Shown here: positions 8,862 through 62,929 of the stretch, one piece after another
Layout: every line of letters begins with the position of its first letter
Position numbering within the stretch: the first letter of the stretch is position 1
IMG/VR virus record: IMGVR_UViG_3300042516_005163
Span: 1 to 64,000 of that record
Reading direction: 5' to 3' (one strand)
DNA: 64,000 nucleotides
Source of the DNA: a virus
Made by a program: the position numbers and the translations under genes
Notes under the pieces: model-generated
What the model was told of the DNA's origin: nothing
The model's input: only the letters and a program-made list of their open reading frames with translations
Database searches by the model: none

Positions 8862-9083
8862 TTAAACTTGAATAAAAACACAGGTGAGAGATTCAGTCTC
8901 TTCAAGTTTTGTCATATGTTTAATGTGGAATTTATATCTTTTCAATTCTTTTCTTAATATTGCAAATCTTTCTACATTAACATTAACAATGATACTACGA
9001 TGGATATCGTCATAGAGAACATAATCACAGAATTCTTCACACAAGCTAGCTGCACGGCTTACGTTTGTGTGTGATTTAGACAT
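8862..9083 (-). CDS. small hypothetical protein
   Basis: This 73-residue protein has no recognised domain. It shows a helix followed by a short beta/alpha pattern (YVLYDDIHRSIIVNVNVERFAILRKELKRYKF). It diverges from the large terminase gene with only 17 bases between the two start codons. A TCTAAATA box lies upstream on the minus strand. Coding use is plausible because the frame is intact and the start has the usual upstream context. Confidence 0.55.
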   Translation of the reverse strand: MSKSHTNVSRAASLCEEFCDYVLYDDIHRSIIVNVNVERFAILRKELKRYKFHIKHMTKLEETESLTCVFIQV

Positions 9084-9100
9084 ATATAATATTTAGATAT

Positions 9101-10792
9101 ATGGCAGGACCTCCAAAAAAGAAACAAACTTACCTAAATAACCCAAATTTACCTACATCAGGTGCGGTGTTTGAATATACACCAACAATGGTAAAGGAAA
9201 TTAAAAAGTGTTCGCAAAATATATTACACTTTGCTGAAGAGTATTTCTTTATCGTACACCCTGATAAAGGTAGAATGAAGATACCCCTTAGACCGTATCA
9301 AAAGAGAGTATTGAGAAAGATGAGAGATAATAGATTTTTCATCTTATTATCACCACGTCAGTCTGGTAAATCTACCATGTATACAATTTACTCATTATGG
9401 CATGCATGTTTTGAAGCTGATAAACGAGTCGTTATTGTAGCTAACAAAGAAGCGACTGCAATTGAAATTTTCAAACGTATTAGATTAGCATATGAGGAAC
9501 TTCCTAACTGGTTAAAACCTGGTGTTGAAGAGTATGGGAAAACTTCTATGAAGCTAGCTAATGGATCGGAAATTGGTATTTCAACCACAACAGGGAGTGC
9601 AGCTCGTGGTATGTCTATTTCCTTATTATTCATTGACGAGTTAGCGTTCATTGAGCCGGGATTAATGGAAGACTTTTGGAAATCCGTTTACCCTACAATT
9701 TCCTCAGCTGAAAAAGCAAAGATCTTTATTGCATCTACCCCAAACGGAACTGGTAATCTTTTCCACAAATTATGGATGGGTGCATTGAAAGGGGATAATG
9801 GATTTGGTTTTGATGAAATTAAATGGGATGAACCACCTAAGAGAGATGAAGCATTTAAAAAGAAGACTATTGAAAACTTGGGTTCATATGAAAGCTGGCT
9901 TCAGGAATACGAATGCATTTTCCTTCAGCATGGTGATGGGGCTATCGACCACGAATATTTTGACAAATTAATTAAAACAGTAAAACAACCTATAGGCGTA
10001 TACGAGGATGGTGCATATAGAATATTTGATGAACCTAAAGATGGTAGAATTTATGCAGCAGGTGTAGATACTGCTGAAGGTATAGGAAAAGATTACTCTA
10101 TAATTAATATCTACGATCTCACAGATCTATCTAATATAGAGCAAGTAGCTATATATTCATCTAATAAGATATCTCCTTATGATTTCACAACTAAAGTTAA
10201 TGAAATTTTAACTCAATGGGGTAAACCACTAGCACTTGTTGAGAGAAATGGTGTTGGTGCTCAGGTTGCAGATAATTTGAGGAACAGATTTTTTTATGAA
10301 AAACTTGTAAATTGGGGTGGTCAGTTAGCAAATCGTAAGCAACAAAATGGGGTAATTTGCCACTCAAATACAAAAAATAAAGCAGTTACTAATATGAGAT
10401 ATTGGGTATCTGAACTCAAATGTGTTAAGTTTAATGACGTTGAGACAATAAAAGAATTTAGAGACTTTACTAGATATCCAAACGGCACATGGGCAGCAAA
10501 AGATGGTTGCCATGATGATAAAGTTATGTCCACCGTTTGGGCTCTTATGGCATTATATGATGACGTTGTGCAGCAGTATTTTGAAATAGCAGAAACCGAT
10601 GATAACAACAAACCCAAAAAACTTGTTATTTCTGATTTCGGAATGAACTTAACTGTAAATCCTAAATCACTTTACGGTGATAATGAAATATTTAAAAATG
10701 ATATTTTCACATTACCTTGTGTATTTGGAATGGGTGATCAAGTAGACAGTGATATAAATACGTTAGAACAAGAAGGCTGGTATATTTTATGA
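9101..10792 (+). CDS. 17: terminase large subunit (gp17-like)
   Basis: This 563-residue DNA-packaging motor carries both expected domains. In the N-terminal ATPase, Walker A is SPRQSGKST at residues 84-92, Walker B is LLFIDE at 175-180, and the coupling motif ASTPNGTGN is at 211-219. The C-terminal nuclease is RNase-H-like, with GVDTAEG (Asp323), Glu381 in LVERNG and the late HDD cluster at 471-473. It cuts concatemeric phage DNA and pumps it into the prohead through the portal. The frame is intact with no intron. It overlaps the next gene by four bases (ATGA). A TATAAT box at 9085-9090 lies 11 bases before the ATG. Confidence 0.95.
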   Translation: MAGPPKKKQTYLNNPNLPTSGAVFEYTPTMVKEIKKCSQNILHFAEEYFFIVHPDKGRMKIPLRPYQKRVLRKMRDNRFFILLSPRQSGKSTMYTIYSLWHACFEADKRVVIVANKEATAIEIFKRIRLAYEELPNWLKPGVEEYGKTSMKLANGSEIGISTTTGSAARGMSISLLFIDELAFIEPGLMEDFWKSVYPTISSAEKAKIFIASTPNGTGNLFHKLWMGALKGDNGFGFDEIKWDEPPKRDEAFKKKTIENLGSYESWLQEYECIFLQHGDGAIDHEYFDKLIKTVKQPIGVYEDGAYRIFDEPKDGRIYAAGVDTAEGIGKDYSIINIYDLTDLSNIEQVAIYSSNKISPYDFTTKVNEILTQWGKPLALVERNGVGAQVADNLRNRFFYEKLVNWGGQLANRKQQNGVICHSNTKNKAVTNMRYWVSELKCVKFNDVETIKEFRDFTRYPNGTWAAKDGCHDDKVMSTVWALMALYDDVVQQYFEIAETDDNNKPKKLVISDFGMNLTVNPKSLYGDNEIFKNDIFTLPCVFGMGDQVDSDINTLEQEGWYIL

Positions 10793-24527: not shown

Positions 24528-25379
24528 ATGGTTATATATAGAACTAAATTTGTTTTGAAATCTGGTGATGTATTTTATTATGTTGGAAAAGATATGAAAA
24601 ATACCAGATCCTATATAGGATCTGGTAAACTGTTACCTTGGTTTATAGAAAACAGTATTTACATACATAAAACAATAATTGGTAAAGCTAATTCTACAGA
24701 GGAACTTACTATACTTGAAAATTATTGGCTACAAAAACTTAATTGTGCAGAACAATGCAATTATTTAAATATTAACGGTTATAGTTCGGGTGGTGTTATT
24801 ATAACTAACAGAAATAAATGGCTAACTTCTTTGCGTTTAGCCACACCTAAGAGGGTGGAAGCTTATAAAAAAACAAGAAATAATTGGTCTAAAGAAAAAA
24901 AGCAAAAGGTTTCGCATAATATTTCTATCGGTGTTAAAAAAGCATTTATAAATACACCTCAACATATAAAAGATTTACGTAAACAAAAAGAGATGAACAC
25001 CAAAGAACAAAGAACACAAGAGCAAAAAAAACACGAAAGTTATCTTAAAAGCCAATCATCAAAACGGGTTGCAAAAGAAAGAGCTTCCGATACAAATAAA
25101 CAAGCAGAATATTCACAGCGTGTATCAGAAGGGGTTAAAAAGTGGCGTAATAGTCTTTCTACAAATGATATTAAAAATATTACATTTAAATACAAAAAAA
25201 CAATGTACACCAAAAATGGGATGTTATCATATGAAGTGCAAATACGTGAAATGATACATAAAAATACAAGTATTGAAATATTTCATTTTTTAAAATCAAA
25301 AAATATTAAGACGCATCATATTTGTGTAAAAAAATTTATTGATTTTTTAATAGATAATCCTATATTGAATTATGATTGA
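24528..25379 (+). CDS. GIY-YIG homing endonuclease (Seg-type)
   Basis: This is a 283-residue protein. The nuclease domain shows FYYVGKDMKN and SYIGSG (YVG at 18-20, YIG at 29-31) and the catalytic-type Glu in TILENYWLQKLN (Glu64). After it comes a NUMOD3-like DNA-binding segment around residues 119-140 (NWSKEKKQKVSHNISIGVKKAF), then a long Lys/Gln-rich helical linker and a C-terminal domain. This is the usual layout of free-standing phage homing endonucleases. It lies between the probable small terminase and dUTPase and overlaps the dUTPase start by eight bases. A late box drives it. A perfect 26-bp palindrome lies inside its 5' coding region. Confidence 0.85.
   Translation: MVIYRTKFVLKSGDVFYYVGKDMKNTRSYIGSGKLLPWFIENSIYIHKTIIGKANSTEELTILENYWLQKLNCAEQCNYLNINGYSSGGVIITNRNKWLTSLRLATPKRVEAYKKTRNNWSKEKKQKVSHNISIGVKKAFINTPQHIKDLRKQKEMNTKEQRTQEQKKHESYLKSQSSKRVAKERASDTNKQAEYSQRVSEGVKKWRNSLSTNDIKNITFKYKKTMYTKNGMLSYEVQIREMIHKNTSIEIFHFLKSKNIKTHHICVKKFIDFLIDNPILNYD
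24602..24627 (+). repeat. perfect 26-bp palindrome inside the endonuclease coding region
   Basis: The 13-base arms starting TACCAGATCCTAT are perfectly self-complementary. As RNA this would fold with a TATA loop and an 11-bp stem. It covers codons 25-33, which encode the YIG half of the active site. See the findings. Confidence 0.9.
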
Positions 25380-54527: not shown

Positions 54528-55424
54528 ATGAAAAAACAGAAAATTATCTTGACCCGTGGTCTGCCTGCGAGCGGCAAAACTTCATGGAGCAAGGAGCAGG
54601 TTGCCAAAAGCAATGGCAAGGTGAAGCGCGTCAACAAGGATGATCTTAGAGAAATGGTAGACAATGGCATTTGGTCCAAGACCAATGAGCAGATGATTCT
54701 CAATGCTCGTGACGCTCTTGTTACTCTCTTTATTAGCAACAAAGATGTGGAAGCTGTGATTGTTGATGATACCAACTTTGAAGAGAAACATTTTAATACC
54801 ATGGTTGGGTTTGCTGATGCATTCAACCGTCTCCACAACAACAACAGAGACATTACCGTTGAATACAAGGACTTCTTGGATGTGTCTCTTGATGAGTGTC
54901 TGCATCGTGATTCTTTGCGTACCAAACCTGTTGGTGAAAAGGTCATCAAGGGAATGCATCAGCGTTATATTTTACCAACTATTCAAGATGTGTTTACAAA
55001 TGTCAAAAATGGTAATACAATTATCTGTGATATTGACGGATGTGCAGCACATCGTTGTGATCGTAACTGGTTTGAATATGACAAGGTCATCAATGATGAG
55101 CCAGATTTTGCAGTTCGCAACATTGTAAATGCTTTTTATGATAAAGGGTATAATATTCTCTTTGTATCAGGCCGTGAAGGCACAGCGATTTGTAGAGAGC
55201 TCACTCAACGCTGGCTTAACGAGAATGGATTTAAACACCATGCTCTTTATATGCGCAAAGAGGGGGATTATAGAAGAGATTCTATTGTCAAGAAGGAAAT
55301 CTATGACGAGCAGATCAAAGATAAATATGTTGTTGAATTTGTTCTAGACGATCGCAGCAGCGTCGTCGCAACTTGGCGTGAAATTGGGCTTAAATGTCTT
55401 CAAGTCCAACCGGGTGATTTTTGA
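54528..55424 (+). CDS. pseT: polynucleotide 5'-kinase/3'-phosphatase (T4 Pnk-like)
   Basis: The length is 298 residues against 301 in T4. The N-terminal kinase has Walker A RGLPASGKTSW (10-20), NKDDLR (37-41) and the lid region HRDSLRTKPVGE. The C-terminal HAD-type phosphatase has ICDIDGCAAH (Asp168, Asp170), VSGREG and VLDDRSSV (Asp274, Asp275). It repairs RNA or DNA ends, in T4 together with RNA ligase to undo host anticodon nuclease damage; no ligase is seen in the window. It has its own promoter and terminator. Its 3' end overlaps the opposing HNH gene by 35 bases. Confidence 0.92.
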   Translation: MKKQKIILTRGLPASGKTSWSKEQVAKSNGKVKRVNKDDLREMVDNGIWSKTNEQMILNARDALVTLFISNKDVEAVIVDDTNFEEKHFNTMVGFADAFNRLHNNNRDITVEYKDFLDVSLDECLHRDSLRTKPVGEKVIKGMHQRYILPTIQDVFTNVKNGNTIICDIDGCAAHRCDRNWFEYDKVINDEPDFAVRNIVNAFYDKGYNILFVSGREGTAICRELTQRWLNENGFKHHALYMRKEGDYRRDSIVKKEIYDEQIKDKYVVEFVLDDRSSVVATWREIGLKCLQVQPGDF

Positions 55425-56352
55425 GTCTACCAGGTATTAGATTACAGGCTGCTGCTTCTTCTGGTAGCAGCCTGTAATTTTTAATACCATCGTTAAAAAA
55501 ACGAGTATTAGGCCTTGCAAAACCACCTCTATTCTTCTGTATATAATGCCTGCCGCATCTCCACCCATTTTTAATAAGTTCTTCTGCTTCTGGATGTGAC
55601 ACTTTTTTTGTTTGAACTCCATCTGTAACACAGACGCCTCTTGATTTGTTGTGCGTGCTCTTCATATTATCTAGTGCTATTTTAGAAAATACTCTGCCTT
55701 TTTTAGCACCCTGTTGAAGATATAATTCTACTTCACTTTTAACAACTTGAAAAGCTTTATCTGCACCCGGAAAATGCATCCAAACAAACCCTGCGCGTTC
55801 TTTGTTTGCATTTACTCTAGACTGTCTTGCGCTATCTGTTGATGCGGCACCTTTTACCCAGCCACACCTCATATAATTATCAAGCTCTTCTTTTGGTATT
55901 TCTTTAGTAATACCATCCTTTTTAACTCTCACTTTATTACTACGAATAGTTTTCATTAATGTAGATACATTTTTTCTAAAATGTTCAAATAAATGTGAAT
56001 TAATATATCGTTTGCTGTTCATTGAAGGTGCATTATTCGACATTTTTCCAAACGCACTCAACATACTAAAATATTTGTCTGTTCCCTTATAAATTTTGCA
56101 CAGCAGAAAGTGACAAATGAAGTGCTCACGGGCCGTTAAAAATACAATATTGCTTTTTGTTTTTTCAAATTTCTTATCTACACTTCTTGGGATGATGTGG
56201 TGAGCTTCTACATACCCAAAATCTTTATTAAGTTGTTTCCTGTTATAGCCTCTTTGTGCTCCTTTACTACATATGCTCAAGTACCATTTTTGATACTTGG
56301 ATTGTTTTGTAGTATATTGAAAATGTAAAATAAAAGTTGAAATATCATTCAT
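55390..56352 (-). CDS. HNH homing endonuclease
   Basis: This is a 320-residue protein. The HNH core lies near residues 47-82: YVEAHHIIPRS (His51-His52), SNIVFLTAREHFICHFLL (Asn68, His77, His81), as in phage free-standing HNH endonucleases. The C-terminal 200 residues hold several short DNA-binding-like repeats (KKDGITKEIPKEELDNYMRCGW; VSHPEAEELIKNGWRCG), which look like NUMOD-type recognition units. It is opposite in orientation to its neighbours and overlaps the pnk 3' end and its terminator. An AATAAATA box lies upstream, so late expression is expected. Confidence 0.85.
   Translation of the reverse strand: MNDISTFILHFQYTTKQSKYQKWYLSICSKGAQRGYNRKQLNKDFGYVEAHHIIPRSVDKKFEKTKSNIVFLTAREHFICHFLLCKIYKGTDKYFSMLSAFGKMSNNAPSMNSKRYINSHLFEHFRKNVSTLMKTIRSNKVRVKKDGITKEIPKEELDNYMRCGWVKGAASTDSARQSRVNANKERAGFVWMHFPGADKAFQVVKSEVELYLQQGAKKGRVFSKIALDNMKSTHNKSRGVCVTDGVQTKKVSHPEAEELIKNGWRCGRHYIQKNRGGFARPNTRFFNDGIKNYRLLPEEAAACNLIPGRLKNHPVGLEDI
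55441..55482 (+). terminator. rho-independent terminator of pnk, inside the opposing HNH gene
   Basis: Perfect 13-bp arms (ATTACAGGCTGCT and AGCAGCCTGTAAT), a 12-base loop and five T residues follow 17 bases after the pnk stop. The minus-strand reading lacks a T-run. Confidence 0.88.
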
Positions 56353-60502: not shown

Positions 60503-60755
60503 AGAAACAAAATTCGCATACCGTCACAAACCAACAGGCAAGTGGGTGTTTATTGAGACGTTCTCAAATGAACCCAAATTTGTTTTAATGCATTTTGTTG
60601 ATGATTTTTGTTCTGATATAATTTACAGTGCAAGAAACATCATTGAAGAAGATTTGATGCGTAGTCGCTACAAAGGTGAGAGATATGCTGCTCAAAACTT
60701 TCTTGAGTTTGAACTTGTGGAAATTGAAATTGAGTATAAAATTAAAACTAGTTGA
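60492..60755 (+). CDS. small hypothetical protein
   Basis: This 87-residue protein has KFAYRHKPTGKWVFIETF and a helical ARNIIEEDLMRSRYKGERYAAQNFLEF. No domain is recognised. A promoter lies just beyond its stop. Confidence 0.6.
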   Translation: MNFKETKFAYRHKPTGKWVFIETFSNEPKFVLMHFVDDFCSDIIYSARNIIEEDLMRSRYKGERYAAQNFLEFELVEIEIEYKIKTS

Positions 60756-60779
60756 GATAATAAGGAAAATGACTATAAT
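60752..60779 (+). promoter_or_regulatory. sigma70-like promoter with GGAAA element, copy d
   Basis: TTGAGA (60752-60757), 16-base spacer and TATAAT (60774-60779). GGAAAAT begins at 60764, ten bases before the -10. The ATG at 60785 is six bases past the -10. Confidence 0.65.
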
Positions 60780-60784
60780 AAGGT

Positions 60785-61396
60785 ATGTCAAAACGACCAA
60801 TTCTAAAATTAAATGCAAGTTTCTTCCCATTGGCTACAAGCTCATGGACTGATATTGTAGTTAATATTTTTTCAGGTGCAGCTCATCCATTAGATATTTG
60901 GTATGCTCAAAAAGAAGATGGAACTTATGATGAAACAACTGTTGAATACTTCAATGTGGTCAAAAATTGGAAAGAGTGGACTTTACTGCCTATCCGTCCT
61001 ATTGATGATTATGTTCATACCACCTCAGGTCCTGTTCGCTTGCCTAGTGTTGTTGTGGCTTCTCGCTATAACAAAGTAAAGTATAAGACTGTGCAGTTTC
61101 CTACCAAGCAAAACATCTTTAAAAGAGACAAATACACTTGCGGTTACTCTGGTCGTAAATTGCAGAAGCATGAATTGAGTGTTGATCATATTCTACCCAT
61201 TAGCCGTGGTGGTGGTAATACCTGGACTAACTTAATCACATGCTGCAAGTCTATAAATACGTTTAAAGATAACAGGACACCAGAAGAATGTGGATTAAAA
61301 TTGCTTTGGAAACCTGAAAAACCAACCAATGGTATTGAAAGTCTTGTATTTGATAATATGCGCGATGACTGGAAAATGTTCTTAAATGCTCAATAA
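60785..61396 (+). CDS. HNH nuclease family protein
   Basis: This 203-residue protein has a C-terminal HNH domain at about 112-165: FKRDKYTCGYSGRKL (Cys119), LSVDHILPISRGGGNTWTNLITCC (Asp134-His135, Asn145, Asn149) and FKDNRTPEE. The order fits McrA-type HNH nucleases with a partial Cys cluster. The N-terminal 110 residues resemble a domain (FFPLATSSWTDIVVNIFSG) often joined to such HNH units in phages. Roles in DNA breakdown or packaging-linked cleavage are possible. It has its own promoter. Confidence 0.8.
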   Translation: MSKRPILKLNASFFPLATSSWTDIVVNIFSGAAHPLDIWYAQKEDGTYDETTVEYFNVVKNWKEWTLLPIRPIDDYVHTTSGPVRLPSVVVASRYNKVKYKTVQFPTKQNIFKRDKYTCGYSGRKLQKHELSVDHILPISRGGGNTWTNLITCCKSINTFKDNRTPEECGLKLLWKPEKPTNGIESLVFDNMRDDWKMFLNAQ

Positions 61397-61400
61397 ACTC

Positions 61401-61445
61401 ATTACCTGTGATATAAATATTAATAACATGAATATCACAGGTAAT
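61401..61445 (+). promoter_or_regulatory. perfect hairpin enclosing a late box and a start codon
   Basis: Thirteen-base arms ATTACCTGTGATA (61401-61413) and TATCACAGGTAAT (61433-61445) pair perfectly around a 19-base loop. The loop contains most of the TATAAATA box and the ATG at 61428. See the findings. Confidence 0.85.
61412..61419 (+). promoter_or_regulatory. late-promoter box TATAAATA before the GIY-YIG endonuclease
   Basis: This exact TATAAATA straddles the edge of the 5' hairpin arm, nine bases before the ATG at 61428. Using T4 geometry, transcription would start near 61425, beyond the 5' arm. Confidence 0.75.
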
Positions 61446-62336
61446 AAAAAAGCTATTTTGTATGTGGTGACAAATAAAGTCAACGGGTTAAAATACTATG
61501 GTGTTGTACATAAAAAAGATAAAACAATACAACAGCGTTTAACTGATCATATTGAAGGTAGGGGTGGTAAATTTTTGTTCCAAGCTATACAAGAATACGG
61601 TGTAGATAATTTTATAATTGAAGAAGTTGAACGTGGTGATTTAGAGTATATATTATTGCGTGAAACGGAAGAAACAGCTAACACCCTATATATGCACGGA
61701 AAAGGTTACAATGGTAATTGTGGAAAATGTATTATATTAAACGAAGAAATGTGGGAAAGAAAAATTGCAAATACCGATCAAGAAACCCGTGTTAAGAGAT
61801 GGAAAGAAACATATAACAAAAATAAACATCTACATAACTATAATAGAGATAATGAGTTTTTAAAAAAACAAGAAAAAAATAATTATTCACAAATTCGAGG
61901 CAAAACAAAGAATGAAAGTGAAAGACTTCTTAAACTTTCTATTTCAAATAAGCAGCGATGGGACAACCCCACGGAGAAGATGATTGAAGGTAAGTTAAAA
62001 TCTATTGAAACAAATAAAAATAAAACACCTGAAGAGAAGCAACTAATTATACAAAAACAGCTGGAAACCAAAAAAACAAAGCGGATGAATGGTGAATATA
62101 TGTTATCATCACCATATAGTTGGCATACACCTATAGGTGTGTTCAAGGATGCTACTGCAGGTGCTACAGCTTTTGGAATAGGTTATAGTACTTTTAAGAC
62201 GTGGTGTAAGAAAAATAAACAAATACTCAAACGTCATCATAAATTTAATGATAAAATACCTCACGATTGGGATAACAAATTTACCAAAGACATAGGTTTT
62301 TATTTTGTAAAGGATACAAAGAGCAAAATGAAATGA
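61428..62336 (+). CDS. GIY-YIG homing endonuclease
   Basis: The ATG at 61428 is preferred over 61386 because the nuclease domain starts directly after it (KAILYVVTNKVNGLKYYGVV) and a late box precedes it. The 302-residue protein has a divergent GIY-YIG pair (LYVV and YYG), ILLRETEETANTLYM with catalytic-type Glu, a Lys-rich linker, and a C-terminal NUMOD1-like segment (GVFKDATAGATAFGIGYSTFKTWCKK) for DNA recognition. It overlaps the next gene by four bases. It lies inside an early-type operon but seems to be controlled as a late gene. Confidence 0.85.
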   Translation: MNITGNKKAILYVVTNKVNGLKYYGVVHKKDKTIQQRLTDHIEGRGGKFLFQAIQEYGVDNFIIEEVERGDLEYILLRETEETANTLYMHGKGYNGNCGKCIILNEEMWERKIANTDQETRVKRWKETYNKNKHLHNYNRDNEFLKKQEKNNYSQIRGKTKNESERLLKLSISNKQRWDNPTEKMIEGKLKSIETNKNKTPEEKQLIIQKQLETKKTKRMNGEYMLSSPYSWHTPIGVFKDATAGATAFGIGYSTFKTWCKKNKQILKRHHKFNDKIPHDWDNKFTKDIGFYFVKDTKSKMK

Positions 62337-62929
62337 GTAATAGATTATATAGTCATAAAATGAAAAATAAATTTTGGTATGATGTTCCTTCATCTTTAAC
62401 ATGGGAAGATTGGGAGAAGTGGCGCAATGATACACGCGCTGCATATCCATTGCAATACTGGCTGCGAGAAACTGTGCCTCATTGGTTCCCAATTCATATC
62501 AAATGGCTTTATCGAGAGCTATACTGGAAAGTTTATCGCTTTTTCAAGCCATGCCATAAGGATATTCGCAAGGTTATTCCTCGTCAGTGGAGCGACATTG
62601 CTAATCTCATTGTTGATGTCAATTTTGCCATGATTCTTTCTTTCAAGAAAGAGGCTGATGAATCTCGGGTTGATTGGGATGGTACTGATAATCATCGCAA
62701 GTTCAAAAATTGGCTTGATGCTGCAGCTCATTGGGTGAAAGAAGGTCGTCCTAATTGCGTTGCACAAATGGAAGCTAGCTACCCTCCTCACCCTCTTCCA
62801 GAGCATATGAAAGAGTATACTTACGATCAATTGTATGGTAACGTAAACCATATGCAAAAGCTTATTGATGAAACCGATACTAATATCATCAAGCAGATGA
62901 TTGACTATCGTGAATACTTTTGGACATGA
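62333..62929 (+). CDS. conserved phage hypothetical protein
   Basis: This 198-residue protein has YDVPSSLTWEDWEKWRNDTRAAYPLQYWL near the N-terminus, a Trp-rich region of a type found in large phages (P.SLTWEEW). It continues with a long helical domain containing VDWDGTDNHRKF and YVKEG-type blocks. The function is unknown. A start at the internal Met10 is possible, since the current ATG overlaps the end of an inserted endonuclease gene. Confidence 0.7.
   Translation: MSNRLYSHKMKNKFWYDVPSSLTWEDWEKWRNDTRAAYPLQYWLRETVPHWFPIHIKWLYRELYWKVYRFFKPCHKDIRKVIPRQWSDIANLIVDVNFAMILSFKKEADESRVDWDGTDNHRKFKNWLDAAAHWVKEGRPNCVAQMEASYPPHPLPEHMKEYTYDQLYGNVNHMQKLIDETDTNIIKQMIDYREYFWT

What the first reader, a model, noticed from the sequence alone, without database searches (positions are those of the whole stretch)
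61401..61445. Homing endonuclease start codon inside a perfect hairpin with an embedded late promoter
Perfect 13-bp arms surround a 19-base loop that contains the ATG (61428) of the GIY-YIG endonuclease. An exact TATAAATA begins in the 5' arm. Read-through early transcripts would fold and hide the start, while a late transcript starting near 61425 lacks the 5' arm and is free to be translated. This is the same logic known for T4 I-TevI, where a hairpin blocks early translation and a late promoter inside it relieves the block. Here it is in a free-standing endonuclease within an early-type operon.
Basis: partly seen in the sequence, partly recalled or inferred. Interest (0 to 1): 0.75.

Follow-up and report, generated by a model that had tools for sequence, protein, structure and literature searches.

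The report
Late-promoter hairpin gating a homing endonuclease
A selfish DNA-cutting gene in an uncultured T4-like phage has its start codon in the loop of a perfect hairpin that also holds a late promoter, so it is probably silent on early read-through messages and translated only late; the switch is known from phage T4, but here it seems to work on leaderless messages without a Shine-Dalgarno site.

Summary
The hairpin is real and slightly better than described: 14-bp perfect arms (61401-61414/61432-61445), 17-nt loop, ATG 61428 in the loop, TATAAATA 61412-61419. It is the only 14-bp perfect inverted repeat with a loop of 3-60 nt in the window (0.04 expected). Four relatives have an empty site between the same two genes, so box and hairpin lie within or at the edge of an inserted GIY-YIG cassette. 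The late promoter is well supported: in this phage and relatives [N]ATAAATA lies 13 nt before start codons (26 of 46 boxes), and three relatives encode gp55. With T4 geometry late mRNAs would be leaderless; no Shine-Dalgarno signal is detectable. The upstream HNH gene has its own sigma70-like promoter and no terminator follows, so sense read-through is expected. Among 106 environmental GIY-YIG genes, hairpins that a late start would break occur in 10 of 21 with a late box and 2 of 85 without (p = 6e-7). Its novelty claim is not: free-standing segB and Aeh1 mobE already show this logic. What differs is confinement of the start codon in a leaderless system lacking Shine-Dalgarno sites. No expression data exist.

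The parts
60752..60779 (+). sigma70-like promoter of the HNH gene (TTGAGA-16-TATAAT), expected source of read-through RNA
   Evidence: 11 of 12 consensus matches; TATAAT 11 nt before the ATG, as at other early genes of the clade
60785..61396 (+). HNH endonuclease gene upstream, co-directional
   Evidence: Pfam HNH_4 2e-10, HNH_5, HNH; phrog_16726 6e-25
61386..61388 (+). alternative in-frame ATG overlapping the HNH stop codon (possible coupled start)
   Evidence: ORF 61386-62336
61401..61414 (+). 5' arm of hairpin, ATTACCTGTGATAT
61412..61419 (+). T4-type late promoter box TATAAATA; predicted +1 at 61425
   Evidence: clade-wide box placement; T4 geometry from PMC2988020
61415..61431 (+). 17-nt loop
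   Evidence: fold
61428..62336 (+). GIY-YIG homing endonuclease, start codon in the loop
   Evidence: Pfam GIY-YIG E 4e-4, just under the curated cut-off; phrog_314 homing endonuclease 6e-9; conserved Y12, Y23, E79, N95
61432..61445 (+). 3' arm of hairpin, ATATCACAGGTAAT, within codons 2-6
62333..62929 (+). downstream phage gene; directly follows HNH in the empty sites

Best explanation
An inserted GIY-YIG homing endonuclease cassette sits co-directionally inside an early-type operon and carries its own T4-type late promoter within a hairpin. Transcripts that read through from the HNH promoter contain both arms, fold, and place the start codon in a 17-nt loop closed by a 14-bp stem that covers codons 2-6, which blocks ribosome loading. 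Late RNA polymerase (gp55 type) starts at about 61425, inside the loop; this RNA lacks the 5' arm, has a 3-nt leader and is translated as a near-leaderless message. Shown by computation: hairpin, box position, clade-wide box placement, gp55 homologues in relatives, empty sites, no terminator match, no Shine-Dalgarno signal. Inferred: the late start site, early read-through, the translational block, and late relief.
For: Hairpin far beyond chance. Late boxes sit 13 nt before start codons across the clade, 26 of 46. gp55 homologues in G007, G008, G009. HNH promoter 11/12 and no terminator match between it and the GIY-YIG gene. Predicted unpaired probability from AUG to codon 6 is 0.17 in read-through RNA and 0.47 in late RNA. 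Hairpins broken by a late start occur in 10 of 21 GIY-YIG genes with a late box and 2 of 85 without; T4 e and segB are recovered by the same test. 42 other late-box genes of the clade have stems of at most 10 bp, and the clade's other endonuclease-like genes with late boxes lie opposite to their upstream gene and lack a hairpin.
Against: No expression data. No close relative of this cassette was found, so the stem itself has no covariation evidence. The record does not hold gp55 (75-kb fragment). The box is 16, not 13, nt from this ATG. The start codon is in the loop, not in the stem, so the block depends on the 30S footprint. A ribosome ending HNH translation at 61396, 4 nt before the stem, could open it.
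Confidence: 0.7

Rival explanations
1. DNA palindrome as operator: a protein, perhaps the endonuclease itself, binds the inverted repeat around the late promoter and represses it, as I-TevI does at its operator.
For: The perfect dyad is centred at about 61423, over the late box and predicted start. Autorepression by I-TevI at a site over its late promoter is documented (PMC2988022). It could act together with the RNA switch.
Against: No similarity above chance between this stretch and the flanking genes, the likely target region (15/20 against shuffle maxima of 14.3 on average and up to 16). Several hairpins at analogous genes contain G-U pairs, which pair in RNA but are not DNA dyads (L076, L197, L201).
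Confidence: 0.12
2. Translational coupling: on read-through RNA, ribosomes finishing HNH at 61396 melt the hairpin and restart at 61386 or 61428, so the hairpin ties the endonuclease to HNH translation instead of delaying it.
For: The HNH stop is 4 nt before the stem and the ORF is open from ATG 61386 inside the HNH gene. PMC2988022 discusses coupling for overlapping endonuclease ORFs.
Against: Does not explain the exact late box in the hairpin, nor the association of late boxes with hairpins at other GIY-YIG genes.
Confidence: 0.1
3. The hairpin has no role in translation: it is a by-product of the insertion, or a stabilising 3' end for HNH mRNA.
For: It sits at the left edge of the insertion, and no homologous hairpin is known.
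Against: No T-run after the stem and no terminator match; start codon and exact late box both fall within it; other GIY-YIG late boxes show the same pairing far above chance.
Confidence: 0.08

Closest known systems
T4 segB (free-standing GIY-YIG endonuclease)
   Same: Free-standing GIY-YIG gene with a late box in the 5' arm of a hairpin over the start region; 12-bp stem recovered here; listed in PMC2988022
   Different: In segB the region has a Shine-Dalgarno-like AGGAGA and the ATG lies in the 3' arm; it sits among tRNA genes. Here no Shine-Dalgarno, ATG in the loop, near-leaderless late RNA
Aeh1 mobE (free-standing HNH endonuclease)
   Same: Free-standing endonuclease inside an early/middle operon, hairpin shown to reduce initiation (PMC3014915; PMC2988022)
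   Different: HNH family; the ribosome binding site is what is sequestered; primary papers not held here
T4 I-TevI, I-TevII, I-TevIII
   Same: Early transcripts fold and hide the start region, late promoter within the hairpin
   Different: Intron-borne; Shine-Dalgarno sequestered
T4 gene e (lysozyme)
   Same: Late gene on early read-through RNA silenced by a hairpin, relieved by late promoters within it (PMC3014915)
   Different: Not a mobile gene; Shine-Dalgarno sequestered; ordinary leader

Membership tests
T4-type hairpin/late-promoter translational switch (I-TevI, segB, mobE, e) | stable hairpin covering the start region, present only on read-through RNA | tested here: met
   14-bp stem, loop holds the AUG; 5' arm lies upstream of the predicted late start
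T4-type hairpin/late-promoter translational switch (I-TevI, segB, mobE, e) | late promoter placed so that late RNA lacks the 5' arm | tested here: met
   TATAAATA 61412-61419, predicted +1 61425; start site not mapped
T4-type hairpin/late-promoter translational switch (I-TevI, segB, mobE, e) | Shine-Dalgarno sequestered in the stem | tested here: not met
   No Shine-Dalgarno upstream of ATG 61428 and no such signal in the clade: 7 against 8 of 308 in a control interval. PMC3014915 allows 'Shine-Dalgarno and/or AUG', so it works like the family but is a variant
T4-type hairpin/late-promoter translational switch (I-TevI, segB, mobE, e) | reduced translation of read-through RNA, relieved late | not testable with these tools
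   needs reporters or probing
T4-type late promoter | TATAAATA consensus at -13 to -6 | tested here: met
   exact match; clade-wide placement at 13-14 nt before start codons, 33 of 46 boxes
T4-type late promoter | recognised by gp55-type sigma with the sliding clamp | tested here: inconclusive
   gp55 homologues in three relatives, none in this 75-kb fragment; recognition itself not testable here
free-standing GIY-YIG homing endonuclease | GIY-YIG catalytic domain with conserved residues | tested here: met
   PF01541 E 4e-4 but 1.4 bits under the curated cut-off; phrog_314 6e-9; Y12, Y23, E79, N95 conserved
free-standing GIY-YIG homing endonuclease | mobile: present/absent at one site among relatives | tested here: met
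   four empty sites between HNH and the 62333 homologue
free-standing GIY-YIG homing endonuclease | cleaves alleles lacking the gene | not testable with these tools
   needs enzyme assay or mixed infection

The most novel reading that the evidence does not exclude
A version of the T4 late-promoter/hairpin switch without Shine-Dalgarno, in which one hairpin separates two modes of translation: leadered read-through RNA is blocked because the start codon is held in a closed loop, while late RNA starts inside that loop and is read as a near-leaderless message. It occurs in a T4-like clade whose late, and some early, messages are predicted to be leaderless.
Probability: 0.5. Interest if true: 0.6.

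Novelty: new variant of a known kind. Interest (0 to 1): 0.45.

Why it matters
It shows the T4 timing switch for homing endonucleases in phages that seem not to use Shine-Dalgarno initiation, and suggests a rule that can be tested widely: a late-promoter hairpin is found where the endonuclease gene would otherwise be read early from an upstream gene on the same strand. The predicted leaderless late messages across a T4-like clade would be of interest beyond this gene.

Tried and rejected
TATAAATA enrichment over the whole window: none; position before start codons carried the signal instead. DNA similarity to deposited phages: none. Close protein relatives of this GIY-YIG in viral contigs: none, so no covariation for this stem. 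The exact hairpin pattern in viral contigs gave two unrelated loci. Operator-equals-target similarity: not above chance. Terminator reading: no match and no T-run. The orientation rule is weak on the scan loci alone (9 of 9 hairpins co-directional against 7 of 10 without hairpin, p = 0.12) and p = 0.006 with this clade's genes included; it is post hoc, and one upstream gene (L083) was called on different strands by two ORF rules. Primary mobE and segB papers not held.

Full report
Observation. The hairpin is present. Its arms are 14 bp and perfect (61401-61414, 61432-61445), the loop is 17 nt and holds ATG 61428, and TATAAATA covers 61412-61419. It is the only perfect inverted repeat of that length with a loop of 3-60 nt in 64 kb (0.04 expected by first-order simulation). 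The 85-nt RNA folds at z = -3.96; the hairpin alone has -16.1 kcal/mol.

Setting. The record is a 75-kb virus fragment with a T4-like terminase, tail sheath, tail tube and clamp loader. The gene upstream, 60785-61396, is an HNH endonuclease with a sigma70-like promoter TTGAGA-16-TATAAT directly before its ATG and no terminator match before the GIY-YIG gene. The GIY-YIG ORF can start at 61428 or at 61386, where the ATG overlaps the HNH stop; 61428 fits the short N-termini of relatives better.

The cassette is an insertion. Four related contigs (L011, L012, L013, L014) have an HNH gene 75-92% identical to this one, followed after 0 to about 30 bases by the homologue of the 62333 gene, with no GIY-YIG and no hairpin. 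The closest, L011, shares AATGAAATGAG with the window at the right edge. The left edge lies in or just after the last HNH codons, next to the start of the hairpin.

Late promoter. TATAAATA is not enriched in the window as a whole. Its position is striking: of 46 [N]ATAAATA boxes within 60 nt upstream of 237 called ORFs in this phage and four relatives, 26 start exactly 13 nt and 7 start 14 nt before the start codon (binomial 6e-33 for one offset). In T4 the box begins at -13 (PMC2988020), so late messages of this clade should start on or next to the start codon. The relatives G007, G008 and G009 encode gp55 homologues. Shine-Dalgarno-like motifs are no more frequent before start codons than further upstream (7 against 8 of 308 genes). 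Several early genes have TATAAT 11-12 nt before the ATG, again pointing to leaderless messages. At 61428 the box is 16 nt away, predicting the leader AAC. The host is unknown; TTGACA/TATAAT-like promoters argue against the usual Bacteroidota promoter type (own knowledge).

Specificity of the hairpin. Among 42 late-box genes of the clade, counted without 61428 (the gene caller took ATG 61386), the longest stem spanning the predicted start is 10 bp, against 14 here. The clade's other endonuclease-like genes with a late box (24528, 56352 on the minus strand, L018, L021, L030 at 9049-9750) lie opposite to the gene upstream and have no hairpin.

Analogues. Two profile scans gave 106 distinct environmental GIY-YIG genes. 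A hairpin that the late start would break (p <= 0.02 against dinucleotide shuffles) occurs in 10 of 21 with a late box and 2 of 85 without (Fisher 6e-7). Some carry a Shine-Dalgarno in the 3' arm (L197, L201) and some contain G-U pairs. The same test recovers T4 e (p = 0.04) and segB (p = 0.01); I-TevII shows its 8-bp stem at p = 0.15. Caveats: the test was designed after seeing this case; the no-box group used a nominal start position; the contigs were not individually typed as T4-like; some counted loci are related (L046/L139, L067/L076). The query alignment A3 of the second scan was built from genes already chosen for a late box, most of them with a hairpin, so the pooled p is inflated; the first scan alone, whose query was not chosen that way, gives 5 of 10 against 3 of 45 (Fisher 0.003).

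Mechanism. The best reading is a hairpin that closes the start codon on read-through RNA and is absent from late RNA. The predicted unpaired probability over AUG to codon 6 rises from 0.17 to 0.47. Block, read-through and late start remain inferences. Coupling to HNH translation and an operator role are live alternatives or additions.

Novelty. Edgell's review describes this arrangement for I-TevI, I-TevII, I-TevIII, segB and Aeh1 mobE, so a free-standing case is known. The difference is the lack of a Shine-Dalgarno site and the predicted near-leaderless late message. In the papers searched I found no description of that variant; most subscription papers are not held.

Noticed in passing
window 1-64000; L031-L036: Late boxes [N]ATAAATA start 13-14 nt before start codons of many structural genes in this phage and four relatives, so late mRNAs should be leaderless; no Shine-Dalgarno signal.
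   Followed up: partly
window 54528, 60149, 60785; L037, L012: Early-type genes with TTGACA/TATAAT-like promoters whose TATAAT lies 11-12 nt before the ATG and an AGGAAA in the spacer, also predicting leaderless mRNA.
   Followed up: partly
window 24528-25379: A second GIY-YIG-like ORF with exact TATAAATA 13 nt before its ATG and no hairpin; no Pfam or PHROG match, so the assignment is by eye.
   Followed up: partly
window 55390-56352 (minus strand): Homing endonuclease (phrog_655, 1e-32) antisense to its neighbours with AATAAATA 17 nt before the ATG.
   Followed up: partly
window 55441-55478: 13-bp perfect hairpin followed by a short T-run after the polynucleotide kinase gene, inside the antisense endonuclease ORF; looks like an intrinsic terminator.
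   Followed up: partly
L030:9049-9750 (minus), G000:71049-71750: Endonuclease VII-like gene (phrog_1035, 1e-10) with TATAAATA 16 nt before its ATG, the same spacing as 61428, and no hairpin.
   Followed up: partly
L003:4049-4636, L009:4034-4621: ORF that by eye resembles an ECF-type sigma factor, two genes upstream of the 62333 homologue in other phages.
   Followed up: no
L069, L197, L201: Strong late-box hairpins at environmental GIY-YIG genes: L069 has 14-bp perfect arms around a loop with TATAAATA; L197 and L201 have a Shine-Dalgarno in the 3' arm.
   Followed up: partly
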